50,118 bases of DNA, from assembly GCF_001552435.1 (NCBI RefSeq), contig NZ_BCRE01000041.1, positions 1-50,118 of the forward strand, given 5' to 3'. Both the position numbers and the translations under genes were made by a program. Shown here piece by piece: positions 4,686 to 31,439 of this stretch. The notes under the pieces were generated by a model. It was not told the origin of the DNA, did no database searches, and saw nothing but the letters and a program-made list of their open reading frames with translations. Source of the DNA: Kribbia dieselivorans NBRC 106261. Lineage in GTDB: Bacteria; Actinomycetota; Actinomycetes; Actinomycetales; Dermatophilaceae. Position 1 is the stretch's first letter. Each line of letters begins with the position of its first letter.

Positions 4686-6002
4686 TCAGCCCTGGGCGAA
4701 CCCCGGCAGCCAGCGCTCCATCGGGTTCCACACGTCGACGTTCGCCTCGAGCTGGCACAGGATGCCGATGCCGCCGAGCCACGTGCGGTAGATCAGCAGG
4801 TACTCCGGCGGCAGGTTGAGCTGGAGGTGGACCTTGAACGTCGGTGACGTGAAGTCCTGGGCGTGCGCGCCCACCTGGCGCATCCACGCCCGGGTGAAGT
4901 GGAACTGGCGCGCGACGAGCGGCTCGATGAACGGCCTGATCGCCTCGAGCAGGAGTTCGGGGTCGGGGCGCTGGCTCGGCTTGATGAAGCCCTCGTCGCG
5001 CAACCCCTGCACGACGGTCTCGGCGCTGCCGTCCAGGGCCTGTCGCAGCAGGTGCCCGATCGGCTCCGGGAAGCCCTCGGGCAGCAGGTTCACCGCACCG
5101 AAGTCGATGACGCCCAACCGCCCGTCCGGGGTGATCCGGAAGTTGCCCGGGTGCGGATCGGCGTGCAGCACCCCGACCTCGACCGGCGCGAGCAGCAGGA
5201 ACTCGTAGTACAGCTGCGCGGCCGCGTCGCGCACGGGCTGGTCGCCGGTGGCGATGACCGAGGCCAGCGAGACTCCGTCGACCCATTCGCTGACGAGGAC
5301 CCGCGGCGAGTGGGCGAGCACCTCGGGCACGAAGTAGTCGGGGTGATCGCGGAAGCCGCGCTCGACGACCTTCTGGTGGTGCGCCTCGAGGGTGTAGTCG
5401 AGCTCCTCGGTCATGCGGGCCTGGAGTTCGCGGATGACCGGACCGATGTCCAGACCGGGCACCCACCCGGCGGTGATCCGCGCCAGCCGCCCGAGTTGCG
5501 CGAGGTCGGACTTCAGCGCCTCCTCGGCCCCCGGGTACTGCACCTTGACGGCGACCTCGCGGCCGTCGCGCCACACGGCCCGGTGCACCTGACCGATCGA
5601 GGCCGCAGCGGCGGGCCGGTCGTCGAACGAGAGGAACTTCGAGGAACGCCAGCGTGGCCCGAGTTCCTCGCTGAGGATGCGGTGCACGGCCTCGGCCCGC
5701 ATCGGCGGGGCGCTCTCCTGCAGCCGGACGAGGGCCTCGCGCAGCGGAGCGGCGTACTCCTCGGGGAACGCCGCCTCCAGCACCGACAGCGATTGCCCGA
5801 CCTTCATGGCCCCACCCTTGAGTTGGCCGAGCACGTCGAAGACCTGCTCGGCGAAGGCGCGTTGCGCGTCGGCATCGATCTTTGCGGCATCACCGCCGGC
5901 GACCTTGCGACCCCACCCAACGGCGCTCCGGCCCGCGAGGCCGAGCGGGATGGAGGCCAGCTTCGCGCTGCGGGACAGGCTGCTACGTGGGACATCGCTC
6001 AC
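4686..6002 (-). CDS. ABC1/UbiB-family atypical protein kinase
   Basis: 438 residues, ADCK/UbiB-like kinase fold. Diagnostic features: MKVGQSLS (KxGQ motif), the loop SIGQVHRAVWRDGREVAVKVQYPG region with its Ala-rich start and VAVK lysine, the catalytic loop HADPHPGNF, and VIDFGAV (DFG). Family members act in quinone or lipid metabolism as ATPases or kinases; the actinobacterial whiB7-linked member (Rv3197-like) has no firm role. GTG 6002 overlaps the TGA of the ThiF-like gene upstream, so the two form a coupled operon. It is convergent with whiB7. Confidence 0.9.
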   Translation of the reverse strand: MSDVPRSSLSRSAKLASIPLGLAGRSAVGWGRKVAGGDAAKIDADAQRAFAEQVFDVLGQLKGGAMKVGQSLSVLEAAFPEEYAAPLREALVRLQESAPPMRAEAVHRILSEELGPRWRSSKFLSFDDRPAAAASIGQVHRAVWRDGREVAVKVQYPGAEEALKSDLAQLGRLARITAGWVPGLDIGPVIRELQARMTEELDYTLEAHHQKVVERGFRDHPDYFVPEVLAHSPRVLVSEWVDGVSLASVIATGDQPVRDAAAQLYYEFLLLAPVEVGVLHADPHPGNFRITPDGRLGVIDFGAVNLLPEGFPEPIGHLLRQALDGSAETVVQGLRDEGFIKPSQRPDPELLLEAIRPFIEPLVARQFHFTRAWMRQVGAHAQDFTSPTFKVHLQLNLPPEYLLIYRTWLGGIGILCQLEANVDVWNPMERWLPGFAQG

Positions 6003-7556: not shown

Positions 7557-8117
7557 TCAGCCCGCCAGAACCCGCCGGGCGGCCGCCACCAGTGCCGCGA
7601 GTTCCTCACTGCCGGAAGGGAGTTCATCGGCCGGCCACCAGGCGACATCGACCGACTCGGCACTGACCACCGGGGTCGCCGATCGGGCGGCCACCGCCGC
7701 GTAGCGCACGTCGAGGTGGGTGCGGCAGCGCCCGAACCCACCCGGCAGATCGTGCGCATCCAGGTGAACCGGGCCGGGCAGCATGGTCAACGCCGACGGA
7801 GCCTCGAGCCCGGACTCCTCGCGCGCCTCACGTTCGGCCGCGGCCGCCAGGGTCGCGTCCGGAGCTTCGAGGTGTCCGCCGAACTGGAACCAGCGCCGGG
7901 CCTTGGCGTGCAGGGTCAACAGCACGTGCTCACCGGCGGGGTCGATCACCAGGCACGACGCCGTCAGGTGAACCGGTGGGCCCGACTTGGCCACCGCGTC
8001 CGGGTGGGCCGCCAGGTGGTCCAGGTACCGCCGGGCCAGCGCGGCCTGGGCCGCGTCGGGAGCCCTCCACGCACGCAACTCCCGCACGGCGCTCGCGTGC
8101 AGGTCCGCGAAGTTCAC
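7557..8117 (-). CDS. Nudix hydrolase
   Basis: 186 residues with a complete Nudix box: GGHLEAPDATLAAAAEREAR followed by EESGL. The flanks (HLTASCLVIDPAGEHVLLTLHAKARRWFQFGGH) resemble ADP-ribose or MutT-type pyrophosphohydrolases; the substrate is not identifiable. ATG 8117 overlaps the stop of the DUF2342 gene (ATGA), so it is the second gene of that operon. It is convergent with the YgjP-like peptidase, 7 nt away. Confidence 0.87.
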   Translation of the reverse strand: MNFADLHASAVRELRAWRAPDAAQAALARRYLDHLAAHPDAVAKSGPPVHLTASCLVIDPAGEHVLLTLHAKARRWFQFGGHLEAPDATLAAAAEREAREESGLEAPSALTMLPGPVHLDAHDLPGGFGRCRTHLDVRYAAVAARSATPVVSAESVDVAWWPADELPSGSEELAALVAAARRVLAG

Positions 8118-9577
8118 GCGGGCGGGTCGGTGGGGGCGGTGCCGGCGCCGGTGCCGGTTTCGCCACCCTCGCCGCGCAGGATCTTGTCGAGTTCGGCGTC
8201 CATGTCGAGCGACTCCTGGCCCGGACCGGCCTGGACCCGCTCGACGTAGCCGAGCACGTCGTCGAGGTCGGCGGCTGTCGGGGCGACGTCGGGGTGGCCC
8301 CAGGCGGCGTCTCGCGACGACGCTCCGACCGCGTTCTCAAGTGCCGACCAGAGGTTCGCGGCGTCGCGCATGCGGCGTGGGCGCAGCTCCAACCCGACGA
8401 GGCTGGCCATGGCCTGCTCGGCCGGGCCGCCGGCCGCGCGCCGCCGCCGCATCATCTCGGCGAGCGCATCGGCGTGCGGCAGCTTGCCGTTCGTGGCGCG
8501 GGCGGTGACGACCTCGACCCACCCCTCGACCAGGGCCAGCCACGTCTCGAGCCGTGCCAGCGCCGCCTTCTGCGCCGCCGAGTGGTGCGGCGTGAAGAGC
8601 GAGCCCTTGAGCATCTCGCTGAGCCCCTCCGGGTCGGTCGGGTCGATGCGCTCGACCGCCGCCTCGATCGCGTCGGTGTCGATGGTGATGTCCCGGGCGT
8701 AGTCGCGCACCGACTGCAGGATCTGCGGGGCGATCCACGGCACGGCGGTGAAGAGGCGCTGGCGCGCCGACTCGCGCACGGCCAGGAAGATCCAGACCTC
8801 GTCGAGGTCGGCATCGAGCCCCTCGGCGAAGGCGGCGATGTTCGTCGGCAGGAGGACCAGGTCGCCGTCCTCGAGCAGGGGGAGGGACACCTCGGTGCCG
8901 GTGAGCGTCTCGGTGGCCAGGCCGCCGACGGCCTGCCCGAGCTGCATGGTGAACATCGACGTCGACATCTTCGCGATCATCGGTTTCATCTGGTTGAGCA
9001 TCACCGACGGATCCAGGCCGGCGGGCACGCCCATCGCGGCCAACTCCTGCGGCGGCAGGTTGCCCAGACGTGACGTGAGCGCGTCGTTGAGGGCCTCGCC
9101 GACCCCGTCGGCAACCGGTTCGATGAGCTCGACCCACACCGGCATGGTCGCCTCGATCCACTCCGCGCGACTCCACGCCAAGCCGGTCAGGTTCGGGGCC
9201 TCGAGGGTGGTGACCTCGTCGAGCCACAGGCGCGCGACCGTGGCGGCCTGGTCGGCCAGGCGGGCGTCGTGGTCACCCATCGACCGGTCGCCGGATTCGC
9301 TGGCCAGCCGCCGGGCGAGGTCGGTGGCGACGTCCTCGTCGACCGCGGCCTCGCCGCCGCTGAACATCGACTGCATCTGCTGGGCCATCGAGCGGAGCAT
9401 CGTCGGGTCGACGTTGTCTATGCCGAACGCCTTGAGCTGGTCGGCCAGGCCCGGGGGCAGATCGCGCCCACCGGTCAGGTCACGGAACACGTTGAGGATC
9501 TCCTCGGGCACGCCGCCGCTGTCACCGGGCTCGTCGGGCGTGCCGGAGTCGTCTGGGCGGTTCGGGAGGTCGGCCAC
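8114..9577 (-). CDS. DUF2342-family putative zinc-dependent metalloprotease
   Basis: 487 residues, homologous in pattern to actinobacterial proteins annotated as zinc-dependent metalloprotease or 'hydrolase' (Rv3195-like). Supporting stretches are LTGLAWSRAEWIEATMPVWVELIEPVA, QLGQAVGGLATETLTGTEVSLPLL, LPTNIAAFAEGLD, EVWIFLAVRESARQRLFTAVPWIA and LETWLALVEGWVEVVTARA. The N-terminus is acidic and low complexity; the C-terminus ends in a Gly/Thr tail. GTG 9577 has GGTGGAG upstream. Catalysis is not proven for the family. Its place between whiB7 and the PDZ protease matches mycobacterial order. Confidence 0.85.
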   Translation of the reverse strand: MADLPNRPDDSGTPDEPGDSGGVPEEILNVFRDLTGGRDLPPGLADQLKAFGIDNVDPTMLRSMAQQMQSMFSGGEAAVDEDVATDLARRLASESGDRSMGDHDARLADQAATVARLWLDEVTTLEAPNLTGLAWSRAEWIEATMPVWVELIEPVADGVGEALNDALTSRLGNLPPQELAAMGVPAGLDPSVMLNQMKPMIAKMSTSMFTMQLGQAVGGLATETLTGTEVSLPLLEDGDLVLLPTNIAAFAEGLDADLDEVWIFLAVRESARQRLFTAVPWIAPQILQSVRDYARDITIDTDAIEAAVERIDPTDPEGLSEMLKGSLFTPHHSAAQKAALARLETWLALVEGWVEVVTARATNGKLPHADALAEMMRRRRAAGGPAEQAMASLVGLELRPRRMRDAANLWSALENAVGASSRDAAWGHPDVAPTAADLDDVLGYVERVQAGPGQESLDMDAELDKILRGEGGETGTGAGTAPTDPPA

Positions 9578-19705: not shown

Positions 19706-19858
19706 GGGTCGACCTCGCAAGCCGCGCAAACGAGGACGCCACCCGCGGTCCGGTCAGCGCCGATGGACCAACGATTCGCTCGCAGCCCGAGCGCTGACAG
19801 CCTTATCTGCTGATCAGATAACAGAATGCAACTGCTCAGGCTGGGGTATGCTGGCGTT

Positions 19859-20191
19859 ATGAGGAACGCACTGCGGGTTGACCCGGCCGATATGTCGCCG
19901 AGCACTTGGGATGAGATCAAGGACTACATCGCCGCTGCTGAGGCAGCCGGTGAGGTCGTCGAGATCACCTCTCGCCTGGAGTTGCTCACCCCTGCGCAGG
20001 CAGCCGCCCGGCTGGGCATTTCCCGCGCCACCGTCGCCCGGCGCATCGAATCCGGCGACATCCACGCCATCAAGGTCGGCTCCCACCACAAGATCCCACT
20101 GCGTGAGTTCGAGCGGTTCCGCGACGAGCGCATGGCCAAGTTGATCCGCGCGACCAGCGAGGAGATCGAAGCCGACCTGTATGGCGCGTAG
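19859..20191 (+). CDS. MerR/excisionase-type HTH protein (antitoxin of a PIN pair)
   Basis: 110 residues. The centre holds a helix-turn-helix of the excisionase type, LLTPAQAAARLGISRATVARRIESGDIHAIKVGSHHKIP, followed by REFERFRDERM. Such proteins often precede PIN-domain ribonucleases and act as antitoxin and repressor. ATG 19859 lies 6 nt after a TATGCT box (19847-19852), so it is probably leaderless. It overlaps the PIN gene start by 11 nt, and the pair is surely co-transcribed. Confidence 0.82.
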   Translation: MRNALRVDPADMSPSTWDEIKDYIAAAEAAGEVVEITSRLELLTPAQAAARLGISRATVARRIESGDIHAIKVGSHHKIPLREFERFRDERMAKLIRATSEEIEADLYGA

Positions 20192-20867
20192 CACCCGAAC
20201 GATCTTCCTCGATGCCAACGTCCTGGCAGCCCCCGTTACCCGCACCCTGCTGCTGGTCGGCATCGAGCCCATCGACATCGTGGCGACCTGGAGTCAGCAC
20301 GCCGAGGCCGAGGCCAACAGGCACCTGCGGTCCCGCGCCATGTCGGTCACCGACCTGCGCACGACCATCTTGGAGTCCGACCTCTCACCGACCGGTGAGA
20401 ACCCGTCCAGGTTCGTCGGCACCAAGGGTGCCGACCGGCAGATCCTCGCGGACGCGATCGCAGCCGAGGCGGCGTTCCTGATCACGACCGACGTCGACGA
20501 CTTCGCCGAGGCCGACCTGGTGTCCGAGAAGGTCGCTGCCGTGAACCCCGACCTTTTCATGGCGTCGCGATTCACCGCAGAGGCGTACCAGCGCGCCCTG
20601 ATCCAGCTCGTCACCAGTCTGAGAAACCCGCCGAAGACCGTCGCGCAGATGCACACCCTCATCGGCCGCAAGCACCCACGCCTCCACCACCGGTTCACTG
20701 CGCTCTACCCCGACGGCGCACGGGACACGTCGCTGGAGCAGGAGCCGCGCGTGCTCTACCGCGGCGCGCGATGCATCATTTGCGGACGAACAGTCAAAGA
20801 CCCCGGCCGTCTGACCTCAGGAAGCCACCCGGCCTGTCTCGCTCGGCTGGCGCCACCGACCCCCTGA
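20181..20867 (+). CDS. PIN-domain ribonuclease-like toxin with C-terminal Cys/His motif
   Basis: 228 residues. PIN acidic residues are visible in IFLDANVL (first Asp), WSQHAEAEANRHL (Glu), GTKGADRQILADAIA (Asp) and LITTDVDDF (Asp). Family members cleave RNA, often tRNA or rRNA. It is longer than a plain VapC: the extra C-terminal part has CIICGRTVKDPGRLTSGSHPAC, a possible small zinc-binding module, after a helical region. It pairs with the HTH gene just upstream. Confidence 0.8.
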   Translation: MARSTRTIFLDANVLAAPVTRTLLLVGIEPIDIVATWSQHAEAEANRHLRSRAMSVTDLRTTILESDLSPTGENPSRFVGTKGADRQILADAIAAEAAFLITTDVDDFAEADLVSEKVAAVNPDLFMASRFTAEAYQRALIQLVTSLRNPPKTVAQMHTLIGRKHPRLHHRFTALYPDGARDTSLEQEPRVLYRGARCIICGRTVKDPGRLTSGSHPACLARLAPPTP

Positions 20868-21043: not shown

Positions 21044-21319
21044 GTGTTGCTGACGCCCAACTGGCTTGAGTGGTATCACCTGCGGCACCAGCAGGAGTGC
21101 TTCAAGTCGGGGGCGGCCTTCGAGGACTACGCCACCAGCGTCCTGGGTCGGTTTCACGAGGACTTCACGAACCCCGCTCCCGCCGGGACGCTTGGCGATG
21201 GAGGTTGCGACGGACTTGCCGATGCTGGGCAGGTTCTCTATGCGTGCTACGGACAGCGGCCCGACCGGAACGCAGAACGCGAGACTCAAGCGAAGCTCGC
21301 ATCCGACTTTGTGCGCGGC
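21044..21319 (+). pseudogene. truncated effector-like protein (ABC-3C/restriction-like N-terminus)
   Basis: GTG 21044 with GGGAGGAAG upstream opens MLLTPNWLEWYHLRHQQECF...FEDYATSVLGRFHEDFTNPAPAGTLGDGGCDGLADAGQVLYACYGQRP...KLASDF. The pattern FEDY...GD...DG...QVLYACY resembles nuclease-like N-terminal domains of ABC-three-component defence effectors (GDWKNDGF...YYQVYAP). It stops abruptly at the junction with the second IS21 fragment (about 21315-21325), so most of the protein is missing. The family assignment is tentative. Confidence 0.5.
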
Positions 21320-22203
21320 TGAGACTCGTGGACGCGACTGGCGATGGCGGCCTTGAGGTCGGGCAGCGTCGCGAACCGTTCATCACGTAGGTCCGCGATG
21401 ATCCGCATCGTGACGTGCCACACGGTGTTCTCCATACTCGCCTTGTCCTTGGCCTTGCGGACCCGACCCGGCAGCACCGCGGCCGAGTAGTGGCCAGCCA
21501 TCTCCCGGTAGGCGTCGTTGAGCACGATCTCACCGTCGCGGGGATGTTTGATCACCCCGGTCTTCAGGTTGTCCGGCACGATCCGTGGCACCGAACCACC
21601 GAAGGCTTCGAACATCGCCACATGCGCCCGCAGCCAGGTGTCCTGCTTCATGTCCAGGGTCGGCTCCACGAACGCGTACCTACTGAACGGCAGACACCCC
21701 ACGAACATGTACACCGTCGTGGTGGTACCGCTGATCGGGTCGGTCAACGCCATCGTCGGGCCGGACCAGTCAACCTCGACCGTCTGGGCGGCCTTGTGCC
21801 CCACCTGGGATGCGACCCCGGTGACCAGCACATGCCGCTGGTAGGTCCGGCAGAACCGGTCGTAACCCATCGCCGGCTCACCAGCGGCAGCCCGCGAGTC
21901 GGTGTACTCACCATGCAGCAACTTCAACGTCACCCCGACCCGGGCCATCTCCTTGTGCACCTGGTCCCAGTCGGGCTGCGCGAAGACGCTCTGGTGCTCA
22001 CCACGTCCGGGGAACAACAGCGCGTACACCTCACCCTCCGGGCGTTGCGCGACGTCATCCCAACCGATGCCGGCCGTGTCCGCGGCCTCCAGCACCGCCG
22101 TGATGCTCTTGCGCGACATCCCCTGCGAGGCTGCGATCGCTCGCCCCGACAGGCCCTCGGCGCGCAACTGCAGCACCAACTTCGCCTTGATCTTCCGTAC
22201 CAT
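21286..22203 (-). pseudogene. IS21-family IstA (second element), C-terminally truncated
   Basis: ATG 22203 opens MVRKIKAKLVLQLRAEGLSGRAIAASQGMSRKS (HTH). The DDE core is partly present: Asp in VEVDWSGPTM and Asp in IVPDNLKTG, with Glu in KASMENTVW. It ends about 306 residues in, at VHESQPRTKS, where about 500 is expected; istB and the right end are gone. The sequence is unlike the IS21 element at 15059-17768. Confidence 0.82.
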
Positions 22204-22212
22204 TGACAGTCC

Positions 22213-22255
22213 GCTCCTTCCGCCGTGCGCCCTATACGCGCACGGCGGAAGGAGC
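22213..22255. repeat. 18-bp perfect hairpin upstream of the second istA
   Basis: The arms 22213-22230 (gctccttccgccgtgcgc) and 22238-22255 are perfectly complementary with a 7-nt loop (cctatac). It lies 10 nt upstream of the istA fragment's start codon on the minus strand. It may limit read-through into the transposase or hide its ribosome site. Confidence 0.7.
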
Positions 22256-22375
22256 CTAAAAACGGTGGCCCCCAACCACGCCACCACCGGCCCCCACGAC
22301 CACTAGCAACCGATCACACCGCCGGCCCCCCGACACCCCGACAGCGGACCCCAGTAAGGCCAATATTCAACTGGT

Positions 22376-22607: not shown

Positions 22608-22635
22608 GACCGATCGTCGAGGCCGCAGCGGTGTC

Positions 22636-22798
22636 ACCGATGTCGCGACTCACCGGTCAACGATCACCGCCGCGAATGTGTCAACGATGCCCCGACTCAC
22701 CTGTCAACCATCAGCGCCACCAGCCGCCTGCCCACCTGTCAACGATGTGGTGCACTCAGACACTGCACCTGCCACCAGTGCGATGTCTCAAGACATCA
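22636..22798. repeat. IS481 terminal region with repeated binding-site motifs
   Basis: Read toward the right there are four copies of a g/tgtcaacgat or gtcaacca core (about 22653, 22681, 22705, 22737), mixed with tgtcgcgactca and ccgactcac. The region ends with the near-palindrome gatgtctcaagacatc (about 22780-22795). These are typical of IS481 ends in actinobacteria. This is the transposase-proximal end of the truncated element at 22376-22607. Confidence 0.6.
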
Positions 22799-22800
22799 CG

Positions 22801-22834
22801 AAGGACCGAACCCACAGATGTGGGTTCGGTCCTT
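22801..22834. terminator. 15-bp perfect hairpin at the edge of the IS481 remnant
   Basis: The arms 22801-22815 and 22820-22834 (aaggaccgaacccac and its complement) are perfect with a 4-nt loop, followed by cttcgtt on the plus strand. It may terminate transcription entering from either side. Confidence 0.65.
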
Positions 22835-22929
22835 CTTCGTTCAGCGGGTGGGGCCGGGTGGGCGTCCGGTGCCTGGGTGGCGCTTGGATGTGTCGAGGAC
22901 GAGTGCGCGGATCAGCTTGCCGGTGAGAG

Positions 22930-22957
22930 TTGGCGTACGTATCTGATCGGATACGTT
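22930..22957 (+). promoter_or_regulatory. promoter and palindromic operator of the XRE gene
   Basis: -35 TTGGCG (22930-22935), a 16-nt spacer, and -10 TACGTT (22952-22957). The spacer and -10 are covered by the palindrome acgtatc-tgatcg-... with arms acgtatc (22936-22942) and gatacgt (22950-22956). A repressor bound here would block RNA polymerase, so autoregulation by the downstream XRE protein is likely. Confidence 0.7.
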
Positions 22958-22963
22958 GGTGAT

Positions 22964-23485
22964 GTGAGTTCTGGGAACATACTCGAAGAGGCCCGCGAAG
23001 CCGCGGGCCTCTCGCGGGCTGCCTTGGCGCTCCGGGCCGGGACGTCCCGGCCCACGCTCTCGGCGTACGAGCACGAGCGGAAGTCGCCCACTCTGGCGAC
23101 GGCGGCCCGGATCGTCGCCGCGGCTGGATTCGACCTCGCCATTACCCCACGAATCGAATTCCGAGAAGGGGCGACCGACCGTGGCCGCTCGATTCAGGTG
23201 CCCAACGTGTTGCCCAGGTTGCCGATCGATCAGGCACTCGCCACGGTGGAGCTTCCGCTGCACCTGAACTGGTCTGACCGAGGCCGCCGCTATGACCTTC
23301 GTGATCGCCGTCAACGCGCCCGCGTGTACGAGATCGTCCTGCGCGAGGGCGGACCACAGGATGTCCTCGCCTACATCGACGGAGCCCTGCTCGTCGACCT
23401 GTGGGAGGACCTCGTGCTACCCACCACGGTCCGCGCGGCATGGCAGCCGATGGTGGCCGGTCAGAGCGCGGGGCAGGTCGCCTGA
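22964..23485 (+). CDS. XRE-family HTH regulator (antitoxin-like)
   Basis: 173 residues. The N-terminal HTH_XRE reads NILEEAREAAGLSRAALALRAGTSRPTLSAYEHERKSPTLATAARIVAAAG. A C-terminal domain of about 110 residues of unknown function follows (LPIDQALATVELPLHLNW..., ALLVDLWEDLVLPTTVRAAW). GTG 22964 is 6 nt after TACGTT, indicating a leaderless mRNA. The stop shares an A with the next start (TGATG), so the small downstream gene is coupled. The layout is that of a two-gene toxin-antitoxin or abortive-infection operon. Confidence 0.8.
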   Translation: MSSGNILEEAREAAGLSRAALALRAGTSRPTLSAYEHERKSPTLATAARIVAAAGFDLAITPRIEFREGATDRGRSIQVPNVLPRLPIDQALATVELPLHLNWSDRGRRYDLRDRRQRARVYEIVLREGGPQDVLAYIDGALLVDLWEDLVLPTTVRAAWQPMVAGQSAGQVA

Positions 23486-23818: not shown

Positions 23819-24466
23819 ATGACGCTGTCGCTTGTCGAGGAGCAGGTTGTGAAGTCGCGTGACCGGGTCAAGGCCTATGGCGAGGTCTTCACCCCGAAGC
23901 ACATGGTCGAGCAGATGCTCGACCTGGTGGCTGAGGACCTGGAGACCGGGCCCGACTTCGTTGACAAGACCTTCCTCGAGCCGTCGGCCGGCGACGGCAA
24001 CTTCCTGGTGGCGATCCTGCGGCGCAAGCTGGCCGCGATCGAACGGCGTTTCCCTGCTGACGAGTGGCGGAATGAGAGTCTGTTCGCTTTGGCCTCCATC
24101 TACGGCATCGAACTGCTCGAGGACAACCACGAGGACGCCAAGGCGAACCTGCTGGCCGAGTTTGTGGGGTTCCACCAGGCTCATGGCACCCCTGCTGATC
24201 CAGGCACCGGTCTGCACCGGGCGGCGGAGTTCCTCATCGGCACCAACATCGTGCGCGGCAACACCCTGACAGCGCAGACGCCTGAGGGTGAGGGCATCCA
24301 ATTCTCCTGGTGGCATCGCGTTGAGGGGCAGCCCGGGGTGGTGCAGCGCGAGCCGTTCACCCTCGCCTCGTTGCGTGATGACGCCGGTTTCGACTTCACC
24401 GTGTACGCCACGTACGAGCCGTGCCCCATCGACGAGGTTCACGAGCAAGGGGGATCCGATGCCTAG
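23819..24466 (+). CDS. DNA adenine methyltransferase, SAM-binding half (motif I protein)
   Basis: 215 residues. It holds KAYGEVFTPKHMVEQMLDLV, the FTP region of Eco57I/type I-like N6-adenine methyltransferases; then motif I FLEPSAGDGNFLVAIL (SAM binding), IYGIELLEDN (motif II position) and NIVRGNTL (motif III position). The catalytic NPPY motif is absent; it is found in the separate protein at 27748-28779. The protein is thus half a methyltransferase and probably works in a complex. It is the first gene of a tight three-gene operon: its stop overlaps the next start by 8 nt. Confidence 0.85.
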   Translation: MTLSLVEEQVVKSRDRVKAYGEVFTPKHMVEQMLDLVAEDLETGPDFVDKTFLEPSAGDGNFLVAILRRKLAAIERRFPADEWRNESLFALASIYGIELLEDNHEDAKANLLAEFVGFHQAHGTPADPGTGLHRAAEFLIGTNIVRGNTLTAQTPEGEGIQFSWWHRVEGQPGVVQREPFTLASLRDDAGFDFTVYATYEPCPIDEVHEQGGSDA

Positions 24467-27400
24467 TCCGAAGATCAGCACGTTCCGGGAGATCGTCCCC
24501 GTCATCTACTCGTGGTCGACGCCGGACGTCCCCAAGTACAACGGCTGGGAGAAGATCGGATACACCGAGCAGGAGAGCGCCGATGTGCGCATCAAGCAGC
24601 AGGCTTCCCAACTGTCGTTGACACAGGAGAAGCGTTGGTCGAGGAGGGCACTGTTCACCACCGAGGCCGGTGGGCGGTTCAGCGACCACGACTTCCACGC
24701 GTACCTCAAGCAGCAGGGCATCACGCGCGAGACCTCGCCGAGGCGGACGGAGTGGCACGATTTCAACGGCGCGGCGAAGAAGTCACTGGAGTACTTCAAC
24801 GACTTCGCCGGTCAGGACTACTCAGACCTCCAGTCCACGGGTGCGGAGTACTACGTGCTGCGGGCCGAGCAGCAGGCGGCCGTGGACATGGCGGTGGAGG
24901 CCTTCACTTCTGGCAAGACCGAGGTGCTGTGGAACGCCAAGCCGCGATTCGGCAAGACTCTGTCGACGTATGACCTGATGCGTGGGCTCGACGTCAAGCG
25001 CGTTCTGGTCGTCACCAACCGACCGGCGATCGCCAACTCCTGGTACGACGACTTCATGCGCTTCATCGGCCACCAGACGACGTTCAAGTTTGTTTCGGAG
25101 TCGGCCTCGTTGGCGGATCGCGCACCGATGTCGAGGGATCAGTGGCGGGACTACTCCAACGCCCACCAGAACGAGGACCCGCGGATCGTGGAGTTCCTCT
25201 CGCTGCAGGACTTGAAGGGCTCGCAGTACTTCGGGGGCCAGTTCAACAAACTCAAGCACGTCGCGGACTTCGACTGGGACCTGCTCGTCATCGACGAGGC
25301 GCACGAGGGCATCGACACCACCAAGACCGATGTCGCCTTCGACCACATCACGCGACAGTGGACGCTGCACCTGTCCGGCACCCCCTTCAGGGCGCTGGCG
25401 GCGGGCAAGTTCGACCAGGATCAGATCTTCAATTGGACCTACGAGGATGAGCAGACGGCCAAGGCCCAGTGGCCGGACAGTGGTGAGGAGAACCCCTACG
25501 CCGCGCTGCCGACGCTCAACCTGCTGACGTACCAGATCTCCCGGATGATCAGCGATCGCCTGGCCGAGGGCGTGGCCATTGACGAAGATTCGGCCAACAT
25601 CGACTTCGCCTTTGACCTCAACGAGTTCTTCTCGACCAAGGACAATGGCTTCTTCGTGCACGGGGACGACGTGTCGCGCTTCCTCGACTCGATGACGACG
25701 CACGAGAAGTACCCGTTCTCGACGCCCGAGCTGCGTGACGAGATCCGCCACTCGTTTTGGCTGCTCAACCGTGTCGCGTCAGCCAAGGCCCTGGAACGGA
25801 TGTTGAAGAAGCACGAGGTCTTCAAGGACTACACGATTGTTCTGGCGGCCGGCGACGGCAAGAGCGAGGACGACACTGACGATGTCGCTGTCGGCAAGTC
25901 CCTCGACAAGGTGCGCAAGGCCATTGCGGAAGCCGAGGCCACCGGAGGCAGGACCATCACGTTGTCGGTGGGGCAACTGACCACGGGTGTCACGATCCCC
26001 GAGTGGACGGCGGTCATCATGCTGTCCGACCTGACCTCACCGGCGCTGTACATGCAGGCGGCGTTCCGGGCGCAGAACCCGTGCACCTTCGAGCGTGGGG
26101 GCCAGGTCTTCCAGAAGGAGAACGCCTATATCTTCGACTTCGCGCCCGAGCGGACGCTGACGATCTTCGACGCCTTCGCCAACAACCTGCACCCCAACCC
26201 CTCGGGCGACCCTGTGGCGCGGCAGGGCAACATCCGCTCTTTGCTCAACTTCTTTCCCGTTCTGGGTGAGGACACAGAGGGTCGGATGATCGAACTCGAC
26301 GCGGCCCAGGTGCTGACCTTCCCGCAGGTGTTCAAGGCCCGTGAGGTCGTGCGCCGCGGATTCCTGTCGAACCTGCTGTTCGCCAACGTCGCGGGGATCT
26401 TCCGCTACTCCGAGCATGTGAAGGAGATCCTCGACAAGCTGCCGGTGGCCAAGCAGGGCAAGATCAAGAACGGCGAGCCGGTCGAGATTCCGCAGCCGCC
26501 GCCGGTCACCGACCCCTACGGCAACGTCAAGGTCGATGTCGAGACCGTGATCAACCCGAAGATCGCCCAGCTCGGCAAGCCGGTCTACCGAGTCGAGGAC
26601 CTTCCGGCCATCCAGCCGGCAGCCCCTCCTCAGATCGCGGCGAAGCAGATCGCGGAGGCCGTGACCGAGCAGACCCGCCAGAAGCGCGAGGAGTTGAAGA
26701 AGGCCTTCGGACTGACCGACGCGCAGGTCAAGCGCGATGAGAAGCGGACCGAGCAGGTCGTGAGGGGAGAGGTCGAGCGCGCCTACGTCGAACACAAGAT
26801 CGCGAGCAAGCACCTCGAGGACGAGCTGAAGAACGCGGCCACGGAGGCCGTGGCAGAGGACGTGCAGGCCAAGAAGCTCGAGCAGGATGGGGCCTTCCAC
26901 GCGAGCATCTTGGCCATCGTCGACAAGACGATGGAGGAGATCGTGCCCGAGGTGGTCATCCGCGAGGAGACCAAGAAGGAGCAGAAGCGCGCCGACCAGA
27001 CGATGGACGACACCCGATCCCATCTACGCGGTTTCGCCCGCACGATCCCGATGTTCCTGATGGCCTACGGCGACCGTGACCTGCGCCTGTCGAACTTCGA
27101 CGACTACACGCCCGACGACGTTTTCGAGGAGATCACCGGCATCACCGAGGCCGAGTTCCGTATCTTGCGCGACGGTCAGGAGGTCACCGAGAAGGACGGC
27201 GCGGTCGTACAGATCCCAGGCATGTTCGACGAGGCCGTCTTCGACCGGTCCGTGCAGGAGTTCCTCGACAAGAAGGAGGCCCTGGCCGACTACTTCGACG
27301 ACGCCCAGACCGAGAACATCTTTGCGTACATTCCGCAGCAGAAGACCTCGCTGGTCTTCACCCCGCAGCCGGTGGTGAAGATGATGGTCGACACCCTGGA

Positions 27401-27746
27401 GGCCGAGAACCCGGGCATCTTCAGTGACCAAACCAAGACCTTCGCGGACCTGTTCTCCACCGCGGGGTTGTTCTTGATGGAGCTCGTGCGACGCCTCGAC
27501 GCTGGCTTGGCCGACACCTACCCGGACCTGGGGGAGCGACTCAAGCACATCCTGACCTCACAGGTGTTCGAGATGAGCCACAACCAGATTCTGCACCGCA
27601 TCACCATCGAGGCGGTCTCTGGCGGTGTGCCCGAGCGCAAGGCGTGGCTCCAGGACTCAGGCCACTTCAAGGTGGGGAACCTGGCACGAATGAGCCCCGA
27701 GGAACGGCAGAAGATGGTCGACGAGATGCTGACGGAAGGCAACTGA
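24459..27746 (+). CDS. nuclease-helicase of a restriction-like system (GIY-YIG-like, SF2 helicase, MTase-like C-terminus)
   Basis: 1095 residues. Residues about 10-130 (VPVIYSWSTPDVPKYNGWEKIGYTEQESADVRIKQQ) look like a GIY-YIG/T5orf172-type nuclease. The SF2 helicase core has motif I NAKPRFGKT (about 160), DEAH in LLVIDEAHEGID (about 276), motif III LHLSGTPFRA (about 305) and motif VI-like MQAAFRAQNP (about 532). A long charged helical region follows (about 730-860). The C-terminus (about 960-1095) reads SLVFTPQPVVKMMVDTL...FADLFSTAGLFLMELVRRL, a second, degenerate FTP/motif I methyltransferase block. The likely role is DNA translocation and cleavage of unmodified DNA. ATG 24459 follows aagggggatcc and overlaps the upstream gene. 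Confidence 0.85.
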   Translation: MPSPKISTFREIVPVIYSWSTPDVPKYNGWEKIGYTEQESADVRIKQQASQLSLTQEKRWSRRALFTTEAGGRFSDHDFHAYLKQQGITRETSPRRTEWHDFNGAAKKSLEYFNDFAGQDYSDLQSTGAEYYVLRAEQQAAVDMAVEAFTSGKTEVLWNAKPRFGKTLSTYDLMRGLDVKRVLVVTNRPAIANSWYDDFMRFIGHQTTFKFVSESASLADRAPMSRDQWRDYSNAHQNEDPRIVEFLSLQDLKGSQYFGGQFNKLKHVADFDWDLLVIDEAHEGIDTTKTDVAFDHITRQWTLHLSGTPFRALAAGKFDQDQIFNWTYEDEQTAKAQWPDSGEENPYAALPTLNLLTYQISRMISDRLAEGVAIDEDSANIDFAFDLNEFFSTKDNGFFVHGDDVSRFLDSMTTHEKYPFSTPELRDEIRHSFWLLNRVASAKALERMLKKHEVFKDYTIVLAAGDGKSEDDTDDVAVGKSLDKVRKAIAEAEATGGRTITLSVGQLTTGVTIPEWTAVIMLSDLTSPALYMQAAFRAQNPCTFERGGQVFQKENAYIFDFAPERTLTIFDAFANNLHPNPSGDPVARQGNIRSLLNFFPVLGEDTEGRMIELDAAQVLTFPQVFKAREVVRRGFLSNLLFANVAGIFRYSEHVKEILDKLPVAKQGKIKNGEPVEIPQPPPVTDPYGNVKVDVETVINPKIAQLGKPVYRVEDLPAIQPAAPPQIAAKQIAEAVTEQTRQKREELKKAFGLTDAQVKRDEKRTEQVVRGEVERAYVEHKIASKHLEDELKNAATEAVAEDVQAKKLEQDGAFHASILAIVDKTMEEIVPEVVIREETKKEQKRADQTMDDTRSHLRGFARTIPMFLMAYGDRDLRLSNFDDYTPDDVFEEITGITEAEFRILRDGQEVTEKDGAVVQIPGMFDEAVFDRSVQEFLDKKEALADYFDDAQTENIFAYIPQQKTSLVFTPQPVVKMMVDTLEAENPGIFSDQTKTFADLFSTAGLFLMELVRRLDAGLADTYPDLGERLKHILTSQVFEMSHNQILHRITIEAVSGGVPERKAWLQDSGHFKVGNLARMSPEERQKMVDEMLTEGN

Positions 27747-27747
27747 C

Positions 27748-28779
27748 ATGAGCAAGAAGTTCGACGTCGTCATTGGCAACCCGCCCTACCAGGAAGAGGC
27801 CCAGGGTGGGGGAACCCGGGATACCCCCGTCTACCACCTGTTCATGGACGCCGCCTACGAGGTCGGCAAGAAGGTCGTGCTCATCACCCCGGCACGCTTC
27901 CTGTTCAACGCCGGGTTCACCTCGAAGACGTGGAACGAGAAGATGCTCGCAGACCCACACCTCACGGTGCCGATCTACGTCCGAGACAGTTCGGAACTCT
28001 TTCCCGGCACGAAGATTCGCGCAGGAATCGCTGTGACATATCGCGACGACTCCCGCGCTGGCGCTCCAATCGGGACATTCACGGCATACCCCGAACTCAA
28101 GACGATCCTGCACAAGGTGCGTGAGTCCGGCGCGACGTTCGTCGACGGTGATGTGTCGAGCGGACGGGATTACGCATTCACGCAGGCGATGCACGACGAC
28201 CACCCCCACGCGGCGAGCAAGATGTCGAGTGATGCGCAGTTCCGGGTCAGCACGAACACCTTTGAGCAGCTTGAGTTCCTCTTTCATGCGACACCGCCAG
28301 CCGAAAACGGCACTTATGTGCGTCTCCTCGGTGTCATCAAGAACAAGCGGATCTACCGCTGGATTCGTAGCGCCTACATAACCTGTCCGGGGAGTTTCGA
28401 CAAGTACAAGGTTGCTGTTCCTGCCGCGAATGAGTCCAACCAGTTGGGGCAGATGGCAGCTCCCCAGGTGCTCGGCCCCGGTGTGGGGGTGACGCAGACG
28501 TTCCTGACCATTGGTGCGTTCGACACCGAAGGTGAAGCACTGGCCTGCTTCGCCTATGTCAAGACCAAGTTCGCTAGAGCGATGCTCTACGTGTTGAAGG
28601 TGACGCAGCACAACCCGCGAAGCACCTGGAAGTGTGTCCCTGCCCAGGACTTCACCTCGGCATCAGACATCGACTGGTCCAAGTCGATCCCGGAGATCGA
28701 CCAACAGCTGTACGCCAAGTACGGACTCGACGATGACGAGATCGCCTTCATCGAGGAGAAGGTCAAACCGATGGACTGA
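27748..28779 (+). CDS. Eco57I-type adenine methyltransferase, catalytic NPPY half
   Basis: 343 residues. It starts at once with MSKKFDVVIGNPPYQEE, the catalytic motif IV of N6-adenine methyltransferases, then YHLFMDAAYEVGKKVVLITPARFLFNAGFTSKTWNEKML, as in Eco57I/type IIG enzymes. The rest (about 170-343) is probably a target-recognition region. The SAM-binding motif I is missing here and is supplied by the proteins at 23819 and/or 24459. It begins one base after the helicase stop, so it is in the same operon. Confidence 0.87.
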   Translation: MSKKFDVVIGNPPYQEEAQGGGTRDTPVYHLFMDAAYEVGKKVVLITPARFLFNAGFTSKTWNEKMLADPHLTVPIYVRDSSELFPGTKIRAGIAVTYRDDSRAGAPIGTFTAYPELKTILHKVRESGATFVDGDVSSGRDYAFTQAMHDDHPHAASKMSSDAQFRVSTNTFEQLEFLFHATPPAENGTYVRLLGVIKNKRIYRWIRSAYITCPGSFDKYKVAVPAANESNQLGQMAAPQVLGPGVGVTQTFLTIGAFDTEGEALACFAYVKTKFARAMLYVLKVTQHNPRSTWKCVPAQDFTSASDIDWSKSIPEIDQQLYAKYGLDDDEIAFIEEKVKPMD

Positions 28780-28856: not shown

Positions 28857-29127
28857 ATGATGAGCAAGGCATGGGTGGTCCGTGCAGGTCGTGACGGAGA
28901 GCAGGAGCAAGCCAACCTCGTCGCGGACACAGCGACGATTGGATGGGGCATCGGCAACCTCACCGGGGTGTCGTCTCGCGAGGAGATGCGCTCGCTGATG
29001 GACGCCGCGTACCCCGAAGACTCCCCGGGTCGCCTGGCCAACCTCACTGGACAGGCTTGGGCATTCCGCAGCCAGATACGACCTGGCGACATCGTGATCA
29101 TGCCGTCGAAACTTCGACCCCGGAAGA
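28857..29127 (+). pseudogene. Mrr-like restriction endonuclease, 5' part (interrupted by IS3 element)
   Basis: AAGGAGGAG precedes ATG 28857/28860. The product MSKAWVVRAGRDGEQEQANLVADTATIGWGIGNL...AFRSQIRPGDIVIMPSKLRP is the N-terminal domain of a family of Mrr-like endonucleases. After CGA CCC (to 29120) the frame enters the IS3 element. The same frame resumes at 30636 as CCC GGT TAC, so the original protein probably read KLRPGYLYLGKSSGPYRY. It follows the methyltransferase operon closely and may have belonged to it. Confidence 0.75.
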
Positions 29128-29153
29128 TGTCAAGCAGTCTGAGACACGTCTCG

Positions 29154-30155
29154 TTACGCGGTCTGTATGAGGGCCTCCGGTGATGGCTGGTTGATCCAGG
29201 CGGCCTTGGGCAGCTGGGGGGCCTGGGGTCGGCGGTTGCCGAACCGTTCGGGGTGGGCGGCGTGGGCGGCATCGAGCGTGGTCTGGCGCTGGGCCCGGAT
29301 CTCGGTTGCGGTGCCGTGGTGCACTGAGGCGGGGGTGTGCAGCCCGATCCCGGTATGACGGTGCTCATGGTTGTAGTAGCCGAAGAAGCCCTCGCAGAAC
29401 GCCCTCGCGTCGGCCAGGGATCCGAACGCCTCGGGGAAGACCGGCGCGTACTTGAGGGTCTTGAACGCGGACTCGCTGTAGGGGTTGTCGTTGCTCACCC
29501 GCGGCCGGGAGTGCGACCGGTCCACCCCGAGGTCGAGCAGGAGCTGCGCGACGGGTTTGGAGGTCATCGAGGTGCCTCGGTCGGCGTGGATCGCTTCGGG
29601 GATGCCGTGGACGCCCATGGCTTCTTCGAGCATCGTCTTGGCGATCTCGGAGTCCTCGCTCGCCTGGACGGTCCAGGCCACGACGTAGCGGGAGAAGATG
29701 TCGAGCACCACGTAGAGCTGGAACCAGATGCCGCGGCCGGGGCCGCGGAGTTTGGTGATGTCCCACGACCACACCTGCCCGGGCCCGGTGGCCAGCAGCT
29801 CGGGCTTCTTCTTCGCCGGATGGGTGGCCTGCCGGCGCCGTTCGCCGGCCGCGCCGTGGGCGCGCAGTAGCCGGTGCATCGTGGACATCGAACACAGGTA
29901 GGTGCCCTCGTCCAGCAGCGTGGCCCAGGTCTGGGCCACCGACTTGTCGCAGAACCTCTCCGAGGTCAGCACCTGCAGAACCTGCGCCTGCTCGGCGGCA
30001 GCGAGTGCGTTCGGGGGTGTCGGCCGCGGCCGGGGGTCGCGCGCCCGTGGGGGCTGCTTGGCGCGGTAGTGACTGCCCCTGGCTCGGCCCAACAGTTCGC
30101 ATGCCTTCTTGACCGAGGTCAGCTCGGCGAGCTCGTCGACCGCCGGGTTGATCAC
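29154..30155 (-). CDS. IS3-family transposase OrfB (DDE integrase)
   Basis: 333 residues. An HTH_21-like N-terminus (VKKACELLGRARGSHYRAKQP) is followed by the rve core: Asp in WSWDITKLRGPG, Asp in IHADRGTSMTSKP, Glu in NPYSESAFKTLKY. Its ATG 30155 overlaps the OrfA stop (ATGA), so it is expressed by coupling or frameshifting. The gene looks intact. Confidence 0.9.
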   Translation of the reverse strand: MINPAVDELAELTSVKKACELLGRARGSHYRAKQPPRARDPRPRPTPPNALAAAEQAQVLQVLTSERFCDKSVAQTWATLLDEGTYLCSMSTMHRLLRAHGAAGERRRQATHPAKKKPELLATGPGQVWSWDITKLRGPGRGIWFQLYVVLDIFSRYVVAWTVQASEDSEIAKTMLEEAMGVHGIPEAIHADRGTSMTSKPVAQLLLDLGVDRSHSRPRVSNDNPYSESAFKTLKYAPVFPEAFGSLADARAFCEGFFGYYNHEHRHTGIGLHTPASVHHGTATEIRAQRQTTLDAAHAAHPERFGNRRPQAPQLPKAAWINQPSPEALIQTA

Positions 30156-30559
30156 CGCTGCGACCGCCTCGGCGTGTCCGTGCTCTCGGAGAGCGTCTCC
30201 AAGAGCGCGTGTGCTTTTCCCACCAGGTCCAACGCGGCCTGGGTCTTGGCCACCTCGGCCTCAGCCTTCTCCGCCCGCGCCCGCAGCTGCTCGATCTCCC
30301 GGTCCCGGCGGTCCTTGGCCTTGGGGCCGAGCGCGGCACTCGCGCCGGCCTCGGCGGCCTTGCGCCACTCCGCGATGTGGGAGGAGTACAGACCCTCCCG
30401 GCGCAGGATCGCGCCACGCTCGTTACGGTCCGCGGCGTCGTACTCGGCCAGGATCTGCGCCTTGTACTCCGCGGTGAAGGTGCGCCGCTTCGGACGGTCT
30501 GCTCGAGGGGTCACCACCCCATCATCGATCCGGGCAGCATCGGCCAACGTCATCGTCAT
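30152..30559 (-). CDS. IS3-family transposase OrfA (HTH protein)
   Basis: 135 residues: RRTFTAEYKAQILAEYDAADRNERGAILRREGLYSSHIAEWRKA is the HTH_Tnp_1 domain, followed by a leucine-zipper-like coil (REIEQLRARAEKAEAEVAKTQAALDLVGKAHALLETL). It forms the DNA-binding part of the transposase with OrfB and looks intact. Confidence 0.88.
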   Translation of the reverse strand: MTMTLADAARIDDGVVTPRADRPKRRTFTAEYKAQILAEYDAADRNERGAILRREGLYSSHIAEWRKAAEAGASAALGPKAKDRRDREIEQLRARAEKAEAEVAKTQAALDLVGKAHALLETLSESTDTPRRSQR

Positions 30560-30632
30560 CCGGTGTCTCGCTTCTCGCCCCGTGCAGAGGGAAGGAACTC
30601 AGCAGTGGTGTCTCACCTCAGCCTGACGCACA

Positions 30633-31439
30633 GGGCCCGGTTACCTTTACCTCGGCAAGAGCTCCGGGCCGTACCGCTATCAAGCCAACGAGTCGGACAC
30701 TGAACGTCGACATCAGCTCCCCGTGGTGTGGCAGGACGAGCCGGTCTCCAAGTCCGCAGTCAAGGACGACCTGCTGTACTCGCTCAACTCGATCATGACG
30801 GTGTTCAACCCTACGCGGAACAATGCAGGTCAGCGCGTGCTGGCGCTGTTCAACACCGGCGAGGATCCCGGCAACATCGGGTCCTGGCCGAAGTTGCCCG
30901 AGCCGCGAAAGTCCGACGCGAGTCCAGACTCAACCGAGGTGTCCGACCCCGACCCCACGCCAAGTCTGGAAGCGATCAGGGACCAGATCCGCACGCATCT
31001 GGTTGAGAACTTCGCGGGCCACAAACTCACCGCTCTGGTTTCCGACATTCTGGAAGCCCTGGGATTCCACTGCGAGGTCTCGCCCCCTGGCCCTGACGGC
31101 GGTGTCGACATCCTCGCTGGCAGGGGACCCCTGGGCCTCGACTCACCCACCCTGATCGTCGAGGTCAAGAGCGAGCCCACCGCGATCGATGTCAAGGTCG
31201 TGCGCGGACTGCATTCAGCGATGACCCAGCACCGAGCTGACCAGGGCCTCCTCGTGGCATGGGGCGGAGTGACCACCGCAGCCACGCGTGAGTTCCTCCG
31301 CGACCGGACCTCCTTCCGGATCTGGGACTCGGAAGAACTCCTCAATCGTCTCTTCGAGACCTACGACCGTCTGCCGGCAAGCACCCGGGCTCGGATCCCT
31401 TTGAAGCAGGCCTGGGTCCTCGATCCGGAGGGTTCATGA
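30633..31439 (+). pseudogene. Mrr-like restriction endonuclease, 3' part
   Basis: An open frame from the IS3 border reads GYLYLGKSSGPYRYQANESDTERRHQLPVVWQDEPVSKSAVKDDLLYSLNSIMTVF..., then a PD-(D/E)xK nuclease domain: FAGHKLTALVSDILEALGFHCEVSPPGPDGGVDILA...LIVEVKSE and VKVVRGLHSAMTQHRADQGLLVAWGGVT. The catalytic Asp (GVDI) and ExK (EVK) are intact. GTG 30723 could still start a nuclease-only fragment, but no clear ribosome site is seen. The pair with 28857-29127 is one split gene. Confidence 0.8.

What the first reader, a model, noticed from the sequence alone, without database searches (positions are those of the whole stretch)
23819..28779. Restriction-like operon with a methyltransferase split over three proteins and a nuclease-helicase between the halves
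Seen: the SAM motif I (FLEPSAGDGNF) is in a 215-residue protein without NPPY; NPPY is the first motif of a separate 343-residue protein without motif I; between them a 1095-residue protein carries a GIY-YIG-like N-terminus, a DEAH helicase and a second degenerate FTP/motif I block (FADLFSTAGLF). All three are coupled or one base apart. Known: Eco57I-type enzymes keep motif I and NPPY in one chain, and type I/III systems keep helicase and methyltransferase subunits separate. Inference: the three proteins assemble one modification/restriction machine in which the helicase subunit may complete the methyltransferase. This is the best candidate here for an under-described system.
Basis: partly seen in the sequence, partly recalled or inferred. 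Interest (0 to 1): 0.75.

Follow-up and report, generated by a model that had tools for sequence, protein, structure and literature searches.

The report
Split methyltransferase restriction system, DrdVI type
Three adjacent genes encode a restriction-modification system whose DNA-methylating enzyme is divided between proteins; it belongs to a little-studied family, and the spare half-enzyme carried by its DNA motor suggests how one recognition part could serve both marking and cutting.

Summary
P0001 (215 aa) carries methyltransferase motifs X-I-II-III. P0002 (1095 aa) is a GIY-YIG-like nuclease plus SF2 translocase ending in a second X-I-II-III block. P0003 (343 aa) starts at motif IV (NPPY) and carries the recognition domain. 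The same genes, order and split recur in 13 of 13 loci found through P0001, so this is not decay or an assembly error.

The family is known: the DrdVI type ("split methylase/RM genes"), with DrdVI (GCAGCC) and MaeIV (GCACY) methyltransferases cloned by others. The window has a variant layout: the spare SAM half sits on the translocase, not on the methyltransferase.

Natural fusions give P0003 two partners: P0001-like halves in some loci, the translocase's block in others. A 9.9-kb phage contig carries a P0001/P0003 pair with no helicase on it. So P0001+P0003 most likely make the m6A methyltransferase, and the translocase's block, whose motif I lacks its first glycine in 49 of 49 rows, most likely ties P0003 to the motor. 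That the two halves exchange on P0003 is inferred, not shown.

The parts
23819..24466 (+). P0001: SAM-binding half of an m6A methyltransferase (motif X EVFTP, motif I EPSAGDGNF, II GIELLEDN, III NIVRGNTL); counterpart of the 212-aa protein on pDrdVI
   Evidence: (39.6% to the pDrdVI protein)
23978..24004 (+). canonical motif I EPSAGDGNF of P0001
   Evidence: EPxxGxGxF in 40 of 46 P1 rows
24459..27746 (+). P0002: nuclease-translocase chain with a C-terminal second SAM-half block
24498..24758 (+). GIY-YIG-like (T5orf172/MUG113) nuclease domain, residues about 14-100
   Evidence: window copy sub-threshold, 7 of 7 relatives pass the T5orf172 cut-off
24846..26258 (+). SF2 RecA-type ATPase/translocase, residues about 130-600
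   Evidence: ResIII 6e-14; model matches RadD (Z 19.5, rmsd 4.0, 330 aligned), SNF2-type motors, LlaBIII/LlaGI
26556..27320 (+). mainly helical region between motor and C-terminal block, residues about 700-954 (coupler-like by position)
   Evidence: secondary structure of the model; residues 701-850 at 0.50-0.61 mean pairwise identity, among the least conserved of P0002
27321..27743 (+). second X-I-II-III block ('psMT') at the end of P0002, residues 955-1095
27441..27473 (+). non-canonical motif I FADLFSTAGLF (first glycine replaced by threonine)
   Evidence: K or T at that place in 49 of 49 rows
27748..28779 (+). P0003: catalytic half (motif IV NPPY onward) plus target recognition domain
27778..27789 (+). 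motif IV NPPY
   Evidence: invariant in 13 rows
28048..28467 (+). variable region of P0003 (residues 101-240), probable specificity-determining part
   Evidence: mean pairwise identity 0.37-0.52 here against 0.63-0.84 at residues 1-100 and 241-340; exchange tracts in relatives

Best explanation
An ATP-dependent restriction-modification system of the DrdVI (split Type IIG) family, working much like a Type ISP enzyme cut into pieces. P0003 holds the catalytic half of an adenine methyltransferase and the target recognition domain. P0001 supplies the SAM-binding half; together they put m6A on an asymmetric site (m6A at such sites is reported by others for the DrdVI and MaeIV relatives; for this locus it is inferred). 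P0002 is the restriction motor: GIY-YIG nuclease, SF2 translocase, helical coupler and, at its end, a copy of the SAM half that has lost the first glycine of motif I. I infer that this block pairs with P0003 and so hands the recognition domain to the motor, which, on an unmethylated site, translocates and cuts. The pairing of P0001 with P0003, and of the P0002 block with P0003, are each supported by natural fusions; that they are alternatives on the same P0003 is inference.
For: Family: P0001 has matches on 72 plasmid records and P0003 on 82 (the overlap was not counted, and only ten of these records were opened). One is pDrdVI of Deinococcus wulumuqiensis, whose three genes match the P1, block-plus-P3 and helicase profiles; M1-2.DrdVI is listed as 6mA, GCAGCC, Type IIG, methyltransferase genes cloned and expressed; DrdVI is described as a fused translocase and REase, with a relative bearing a GIY-YIG domain; MaeIV is called the same split family, GCACY. 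P0001+P0003: one chain in L095, L097 (broken after the catalytic part), L109, L110, L111. The L109 fusion models as one adenine methyltransferase plus recognition domain: Foldseek best CamA, E 2.8e-8; by VIA-align BrxX Z 15.4 (rmsd 5.9, 434 aligned), CamA Z 15.1 (6.5, 393, model 85-655), LlaGI Z 14.1 (7.1, 399), DrdV Z 13.5 (7.1, 385), LlaBIII Z 13.4 (7.1, 379). Pair overlapping by one base, no nuclease or helicase match on the 9,946 bases, in phage contig L117. P0002 block+P0003: one chain in E. faecium L126 and in every DrdVI-type locus examined, with Pfam Eco57I covering the junction (3-171 of 171, E 1.1e-18; 1-171, E 6.4e-37 on pDrdVI). P0002 as motor: RadD Z 19.5 (rmsd 4.0, 330), LlaBIII second in Foldseek (E 1e-9). 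Specificity in P0003: in L106/L107 the sharpest drop in DNA identity (0.36-0.79) lies inside P0003; L107/L108 have P0002 97.0% but P0003 30.6% identical.
Against: No activity data for this locus. The P0002 block may still bind SAM: loss of the first motif I glycine is not fatal in all methyltransferases (M.TaqI, recalled). In DrdVI-type and E. faecium-type loci the block is covalently joined to P0003, so P0001 would have to displace it or bind another P0003 copy; nothing here shows that. The published DrdVI and MaeIV clones carried both methyltransferase genes, on pDrdVI P1 plus block-P3, so they do not separate P0001 from the block. The L109 model is of middling quality (pLDDT 66.9, pTM 0.60; 16 rows, 3 of them full-length fusions) with high rmsd values, and its P1 half (LEVTCGEAPF) is diverged from P0001. 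The block did not fold with confidence in the lone P0002 model (residues 997-1004 under 50). In the Agromyces pair L004/L008 P0003 changes (62.2%) while P0001 hardly does (93.5%), so P0001-P0003 co-adaptation is not evident there.
Confidence: 0.62

Rival explanations
1. The P0002 block plus P0003 form the active methyltransferase (as a split Type ISP enzyme), and P0001 is an accessory or activating subunit.
For: In-frame fusions block-P0003 in L126, pDrdVI and others, with Pfam Eco57I running across the junction; the block is strongly conserved (0.82 and 0.75 mean pairwise identity at residues 951-1050); D997 and G1003 of its motif I are invariant in 22 rows.
Against: First glycine of motif I is K or T in 49 of 49 rows whereas P0001 is canonical; P0001-P0003 fusions and the pair in L117; a P1 lies with P3 in 16 of 16 genomes with a P0003 match.
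Confidence: 0.2
2. One fixed heterotrimer: P0001-P0003 is the methyltransferase and the P0002 block is only a structural adaptor that binds the P0001-P0003 unit without replacing P0001. (This shares most of the best explanation, so the odds are not exclusive.)
For: Gene order P1-P3-P2, or P1-P3 fused with the block left on the motor; block conserved but motif I altered.
Against: Block-P0003 fusions place the block exactly where a SAM half belongs in the chain order X-I-II-III-IV.
Confidence: 0.25
3. Decayed or fragmented Type IIG/ISP enzyme without function.
For: Parts that form one chain in relatives are separate here; the neighbouring PDC-S02 gene is interrupted by transposase genes; some relatives are broken (L097, L098, L114).
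Against: Same split and close spacing in 13 of 13 loci, invariant catalytic motifs, all three window frames open and full length.
Confidence: 0.03

Closest known systems
DrdVI (M1.DrdVI, M2.DrdVI, DrdVI translocase-REase; Deinococcus wulumuqiensis pDrdVI) and MaeIV
   Same: Homologous P1 subunit, NPPY/recognition protein and GIY-YIG translocase, all adjacent on pDrdVI; called a 'split methylase/RM' family. MaeIV was not compared by sequence here.
   Different: On pDrdVI the second SAM-half block is fused to the NPPY protein (539 aa) and no block was found on the translocase (851 aa); in the window the block is on the translocase (1095 aa) and the NPPY protein starts at motif IV.
Enterococcus faecium plasmid system L126 (NZ_LR135198) and lactic-acid-bacteria relatives
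   Same: P1 gene followed by nuclease-helicase-block-NPPY-recognition parts in the same linear order as window P0002-P0003.
   Different: P0002 and P0003 are one chain of about 1450 aa there.
Type ISP enzymes LlaGI / LlaBIII
   Same: Domain order nuclease, SF2 ATPase, helical coupler, methyltransferase, recognition domain; structural matches of both models (domain description read in passages).
   Different: Type ISP is one chain with an Mrr-family nuclease; here three chains, GIY-YIG-like nuclease, and an extra SAM half.
OspHL35III-type Type IIG-like systems
   Same: Separate methyltransferase and translocase, GIY-YIG endonuclease (figure legend read in a passage; no sequence comparison made).
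   Different: There the methyltransferase is one MmeI-like chain and the GIY-YIG protein is separate from the translocase.

Membership tests
DrdVI-type split Type IIG systems | Small separate SAM-half protein (P1) next to the NPPY protein | tested here: met
   P0001 aligns to the pDrdVI 212-aa protein, 39.6%, E 5e-32, profile E 2.8e-44
DrdVI-type split Type IIG systems | NPPY protein with C-terminal recognition domain homologous to the pDrdVI 539-aa protein | tested here: met
   P3cat 1.5e-16 and P3trd 6.1e-20 on the pDrdVI protein
DrdVI-type split Type IIG systems | Fused GIY-YIG nuclease-translocase | tested here: met
   P2hel 1.5e-62 on the pDrdVI 851-aa protein; T5orf172 4.4e-7 on its N-terminus; the window N-terminus gives only sub-threshold MUG113, its link being the conserved N-terminal profile
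DrdVI-type split Type IIG systems | Gene layout P1 | block-NPPY protein | translocase as on pDrdVI | tested here: not met
   Window layout is P1 | translocase-block | NPPY protein; the window layout is one side of a fully supported branch, 14 rows of 39, in the helicase tree. I treat layout as variable within the family
DrdVI-type split Type IIG systems | m6A methylation of an asymmetric site | not testable with these tools
   No methylome or activity data for this locus
Type ISP (LlaGI, LlaBIII) | All domains in a single polypeptide | tested here: not met
   Three chains
Type ISP (LlaGI, LlaBIII) | N-terminal Mrr-family nuclease | tested here: not met
   No Mrr_cat match on P0002 at E 0.1; T5orf172 in the relatives' N-termini
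Type ISP (LlaGI, LlaBIII) | SF2 ATPase-coupler-methyltransferase-recognition order | tested here: met
   P0002 model and L109 fusion model both match LlaBIII/LlaGI; for P0002 against LlaBIII rmsd is 20.2 over 492 residues, so order only, not one rigid body
Classical Eco57I-type IIG | Motif I and NPPY in one chain, no helicase | tested here: not met
Type I | The set consists of HsdR, HsdM and HsdS | tested here: not met
   None of the three proteins matches an S-subunit family; weak type I matches only (PADLOC MTase_I E 0.0018 on P0001; NCBIfam HsdR-like 15.4 bits against a cut-off of 729 on P0002). Not every other ORF of the window was scanned

The most novel reading that the evidence does not exclude
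Two homologous SAM half-domains, one on a free protein and one on the restriction motor, compete for the same catalytic-plus-recognition half. With P0001 it is a methyltransferase; with the motor's block it is the targeting part of the nuclease. One recognition domain would thus serve both activities by exchange of half a Rossmann fold, and a single swap of P0003 would change both specificities together.
Probability: 0.35. Interest if true: 0.75.

Novelty: new variant of a known kind. Interest (0 to 1): 0.48.

Why it matters
Restriction systems must keep marking and cutting aimed at the same sequence. If a single recognition protein is shared by exchanging half of its methyltransferase fold between a marking partner and a cutting partner, that is a simple and testable way to do it, and a ready-made natural split adenine methyltransferase for engineering. 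Relatives occur on plasmids, in genomes of the window's phylum and in viral-collection contigs, yet the paper search made here found three papers that name DrdVI.

Tried and rejected
PDB sequence search with the three proteins gave nothing useful (best E 0.91 and 0.43, none for P0003). Pfam on P0002 alone sees neither the C-terminal block nor the nuclease. The viral scan with the P1 profile gave 3 loci: L117 is used; L118 is only noted; L119 (a weak P1 match inside a 1019-aa frame) was dropped. The scan with the L095 fusion gave 2 loci: L120 is used; L121 (a P1 part at a contig end) was dropped. The scan with the pDrdVI 539-aa protein gave 4 loci, all of DrdVI layout, three of them alike. An alignment that mixed free P1 rows into the fused P1-P3 rows misplaced P1 C-termini and was replaced; alignment A5 was made but not used. 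Csp12AI is FokI-like, not related. The archaeal survey has none of the six terms looked for. CglI appeared only in a search listing. BrxX is a structural relative of the methyltransferase; other BREX genes were not looked for beyond the family scans.

Recombination: in L107/L108 the exchanged tract takes in about the last two thirds of the P1 gene and all of P3, which could be co-adaptation or simple linkage, so it is not used as proof; in L106/L107 part of P2 also differs (0.79-0.91 at 7900-9299). The P2psMT profile did not match the Lactobacillus/Lactococcus chains L046, L051, L052, L127; I read the block there by eye (LTPWRVV, EINSKTG). In the tree two long branches (L103, L120) are flagged, L047 was labelled before its upstream P1 had been seen (seen), and L097 was counted as fused although its frame is broken. 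I considered 'P1 is never fused to the block', but the Bibersteinia ORF described (M1-like N-terminus, M2-like C-terminus) may be such a case, so I do not claim it.
Full report
What is there. Three genes on the + strand, 23819-24466, 24459-27746 and 27748-28779, encode proteins of 215, 1095 and 343 residues. The first pair overlaps by 8 bases and the second pair is separated by one base (TGA C ATG). The first protein has motifs X, I, II and III of an amino-methyltransferase and stops before motif IV. The third begins with motif IV, NPPY at residues 11-14. The second has a GIY-YIG-like start, a ResIII ATPase (6e-14) and, in its last 140 residues, a second X-I-II-III block with FADLFSTAGLF in the place of motif I. 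Pfam Eco57I fits the third protein only from profile position 72 to 171 of 171, so the gene border runs through that domain. The motif names are recalled knowledge; no call labels them.

It is conserved. A pattern scan of the genome-contig collection with P0001 gave 13 loci at 58-77% identity; in 13 of 13 the three genes stand in the same order and strand (L011 and L013 give the same figures, so 12 distinct). P2 stop and P3 start are one base apart in 11 of 13 and overlap by 4 bases in 2 of 13. In the 13-row alignments EPxAGDGNF, FSTAGLF and NPPY are invariant. P0003 is the least conserved protein (0.59 mean pairwise identity against 0.67 and 0.73), and its residues 101-240 fall to 0.37-0.52 between flanks at 0.63-0.84.

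The family is known. P0001 has matches on 72 plasmid records and P0003 on 82 (overlap not counted; ten records opened). One is pDrdVI of Deinococcus wulumuqiensis, where a 212-aa protein, a 539-aa protein and an 851-aa helicase match the P1, block-plus-P3 and P2hel profiles. [quoted passage not shown] coli; [quoted passage not shown] A search for DrdVI with 'restriction' found these three papers and no other in the held library. Further searches listed no paper that I recognised as describing the window's layout; of the listed papers I opened passages of PMC10609329, PMC4752239, PMC12707154 and PMC4872093 only.

Layouts. In one and the same draw of 396 genomes of the window's phylum the P2, P1 and P3 profiles matched 17, 17 and 16 genomes (4 of the 17 P1 matches, G167, G253, G263 and G380, are weak, E 1.8e-9 to 9.3e-11, lie in genomes without a P2 or P3 match, and are not counted further). 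Of the 16 with P3, 12 have a strong P1 match and the other 4 (G012, G142, G196, G291) have a diverged P1 (profile E 1.7e-7 to 1.3e-4) fused to or just upstream of P3, so 16 of 16 have a P1. By layout the 17 P2 genomes are: window type, 2 (G000, G268); P1 | block-P3 | helicase as on pDrdVI, 11 (G298 and G025 cut by contig ends); P1 fused to or beside P3, with helicase-block, 4 (G012 and G142 with broken frames) (and coordinates for G178). In viral contigs, 12 loci were found through P2 (L113 and L116 repeat L106); 11 could be tested for neighbours (L112 begins inside the system) and 11 of 11 have P1 and P3 beside it, one of them (L114) broken by stops. Enterococcus faecium L126 has the window's order with P2 and P3 as one chain. 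On a helicase tree of 39 rows the layouts need at least 8 changes, 5 being the least possible for six states; the window layout is one side of a fully supported branch (with two long branches flagged).

Two partners for one half. P1-P3 fusions occur in L095, L097, L109, L110 and L111. Block-P3 fusions occur in L126 and in every DrdVI-type locus examined, and Pfam Eco57I spans that junction (3-171 of 171; 1-171). The P1 and block profiles are homologous (probability 97.9, E 4.6e-13 over 60 columns). In 49 of 49 block rows the first glycine of motif I is K or T, while 40 of 46 P1 rows keep EPxxGxGxF; one more reads EITCGEAPF and in five the matched stretch did not include the motif (counted from the printed list, rows not made non-redundant). 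A phage contig (L117) carries P1 (138 aa) and P3 (279 aa) overlapping by one base; on its 9,946 bases no nuclease or helicase profile matched, and the block profile matched only the P1 protein, more weakly than the P1 profile did. A helicase beyond the contig is not excluded; that it is a phage contig rests on its collection and on terminase- and tape-measure-like ORFs that I recognised by eye. From this I take P0001+P0003 as the methyltransferase and the P0002 block as a probably non-catalytic SAM-half copy that joins P0003 to the motor.

Structure. The L109 P1-P3 fusion (pLDDT 66.9, pTM 0.60) matches adenine methyltransferases with recognition domain over both halves: BrxX Z 15.4 (rmsd 5.9, 434 residues), CamA Z 15.1 (6.5, 393, model 85-655), LlaGI Z 14.1 (7.1, 399), DrdV Z 13.5 (7.1, 385), LlaBIII Z 13.4 (7.1, 379); Foldseek puts CamA first, E 2.8e-8. 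The P0002 model (pLDDT 77.0, pTM 0.63) matches RadD (Z 19.5, rmsd 4.0, 330 residues) and many SNF2-type motors over residues 128-601; LlaBIII is second in Foldseek (E 1e-9) and aligns from residue 130 to 1095 with its residues 174-1011, but with rmsd 20.2 over 492 residues, so as a domain order, not as one rigid body.

Specificity. L106 and L107 are 97-100% identical in DNA through P1 and into P3, fall to 0.36-0.79 at 5200-5999 within P3, and are 0.79-1.0 in P2. L107 and L108 have P2 97.0% identical, P1 77.0%, P3 30.6%, with the exchanged tract running from inside P1 to the end of P3. In L004/L008, with the window's gene order, P1 and P2 are 93.5% and 88.9% identical and P3 62.2%. So P3 is the part that is swapped, and recognition most likely lies there.

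Verdict. A real, conserved, three-gene split restriction-modification system of the DrdVI family in a variant layout. Family membership is near certain (about 0.95); P0001+P0003 as the methyltransferase is likely (about 0.75); docking of the P0002 block on P0003 in place of P0001 is the boldest step (about 0.35). These odds are judgement.

Noticed in passing
window 28857-31439: A PDC-S02 (phage defence candidate) gene with an Mrr-type nuclease part is cut in two: N-part 28857-29183 (profile 2-87) and C-part 30723-31439 (profile 116-343), with transposase-type ORFs between them (29154-30155 rve above cut-off; 30152-30559 HTH_Tnp_1 just below). The ends of the insertion and any short target duplication were not determined. 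A weak relative of the N-part (37%) lies just downstream of the system in viral contig L115.
   Followed up: partly
window 21286-22287: Integrase/transposase-like ORF on the - strand upstream of the trio (rve E 4.9e-6, below its cut-off).
   Followed up: no
window 22631-23485: HTH_3 regulator-like protein upstream of the trio; no relative at E 1e-5 in the other loci held.
   Followed up: no
window 19826-20867: HTH_17/excisionase-type DNA-binding protein followed by a protein with a PIN-family match far below its cut-off (41.5 of 170 bits), a possible toxin-antitoxin pair.
   Followed up: no
L117:1999-3254: Phage contig with a split methyltransferase pair (138 + 279 aa) and no helicase match, and upstream at 530-988 an ORF with a sub-threshold SegE GIY-YIG match.
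   Followed up: partly
L046:1720-2280: Lactobacillus-type chains carry an extra N-terminal part of about 190 residues before the GIY-YIG part, weakly like DUF4145 (E 0.017, below cut-off).
   Followed up: no
L045:3525-6891: E. faecalis pTEF3 carries only the rear of the chain (612 aa: middle region, block, P3); an IS256 transposase gene lies just upstream.
   Followed up: no
L118:4399-8519: Viral contig with a 1185-aa chain carrying methyltransferase matches of its own, followed by a P1-like 188-aa protein: perhaps a further layout.
   Followed up: no
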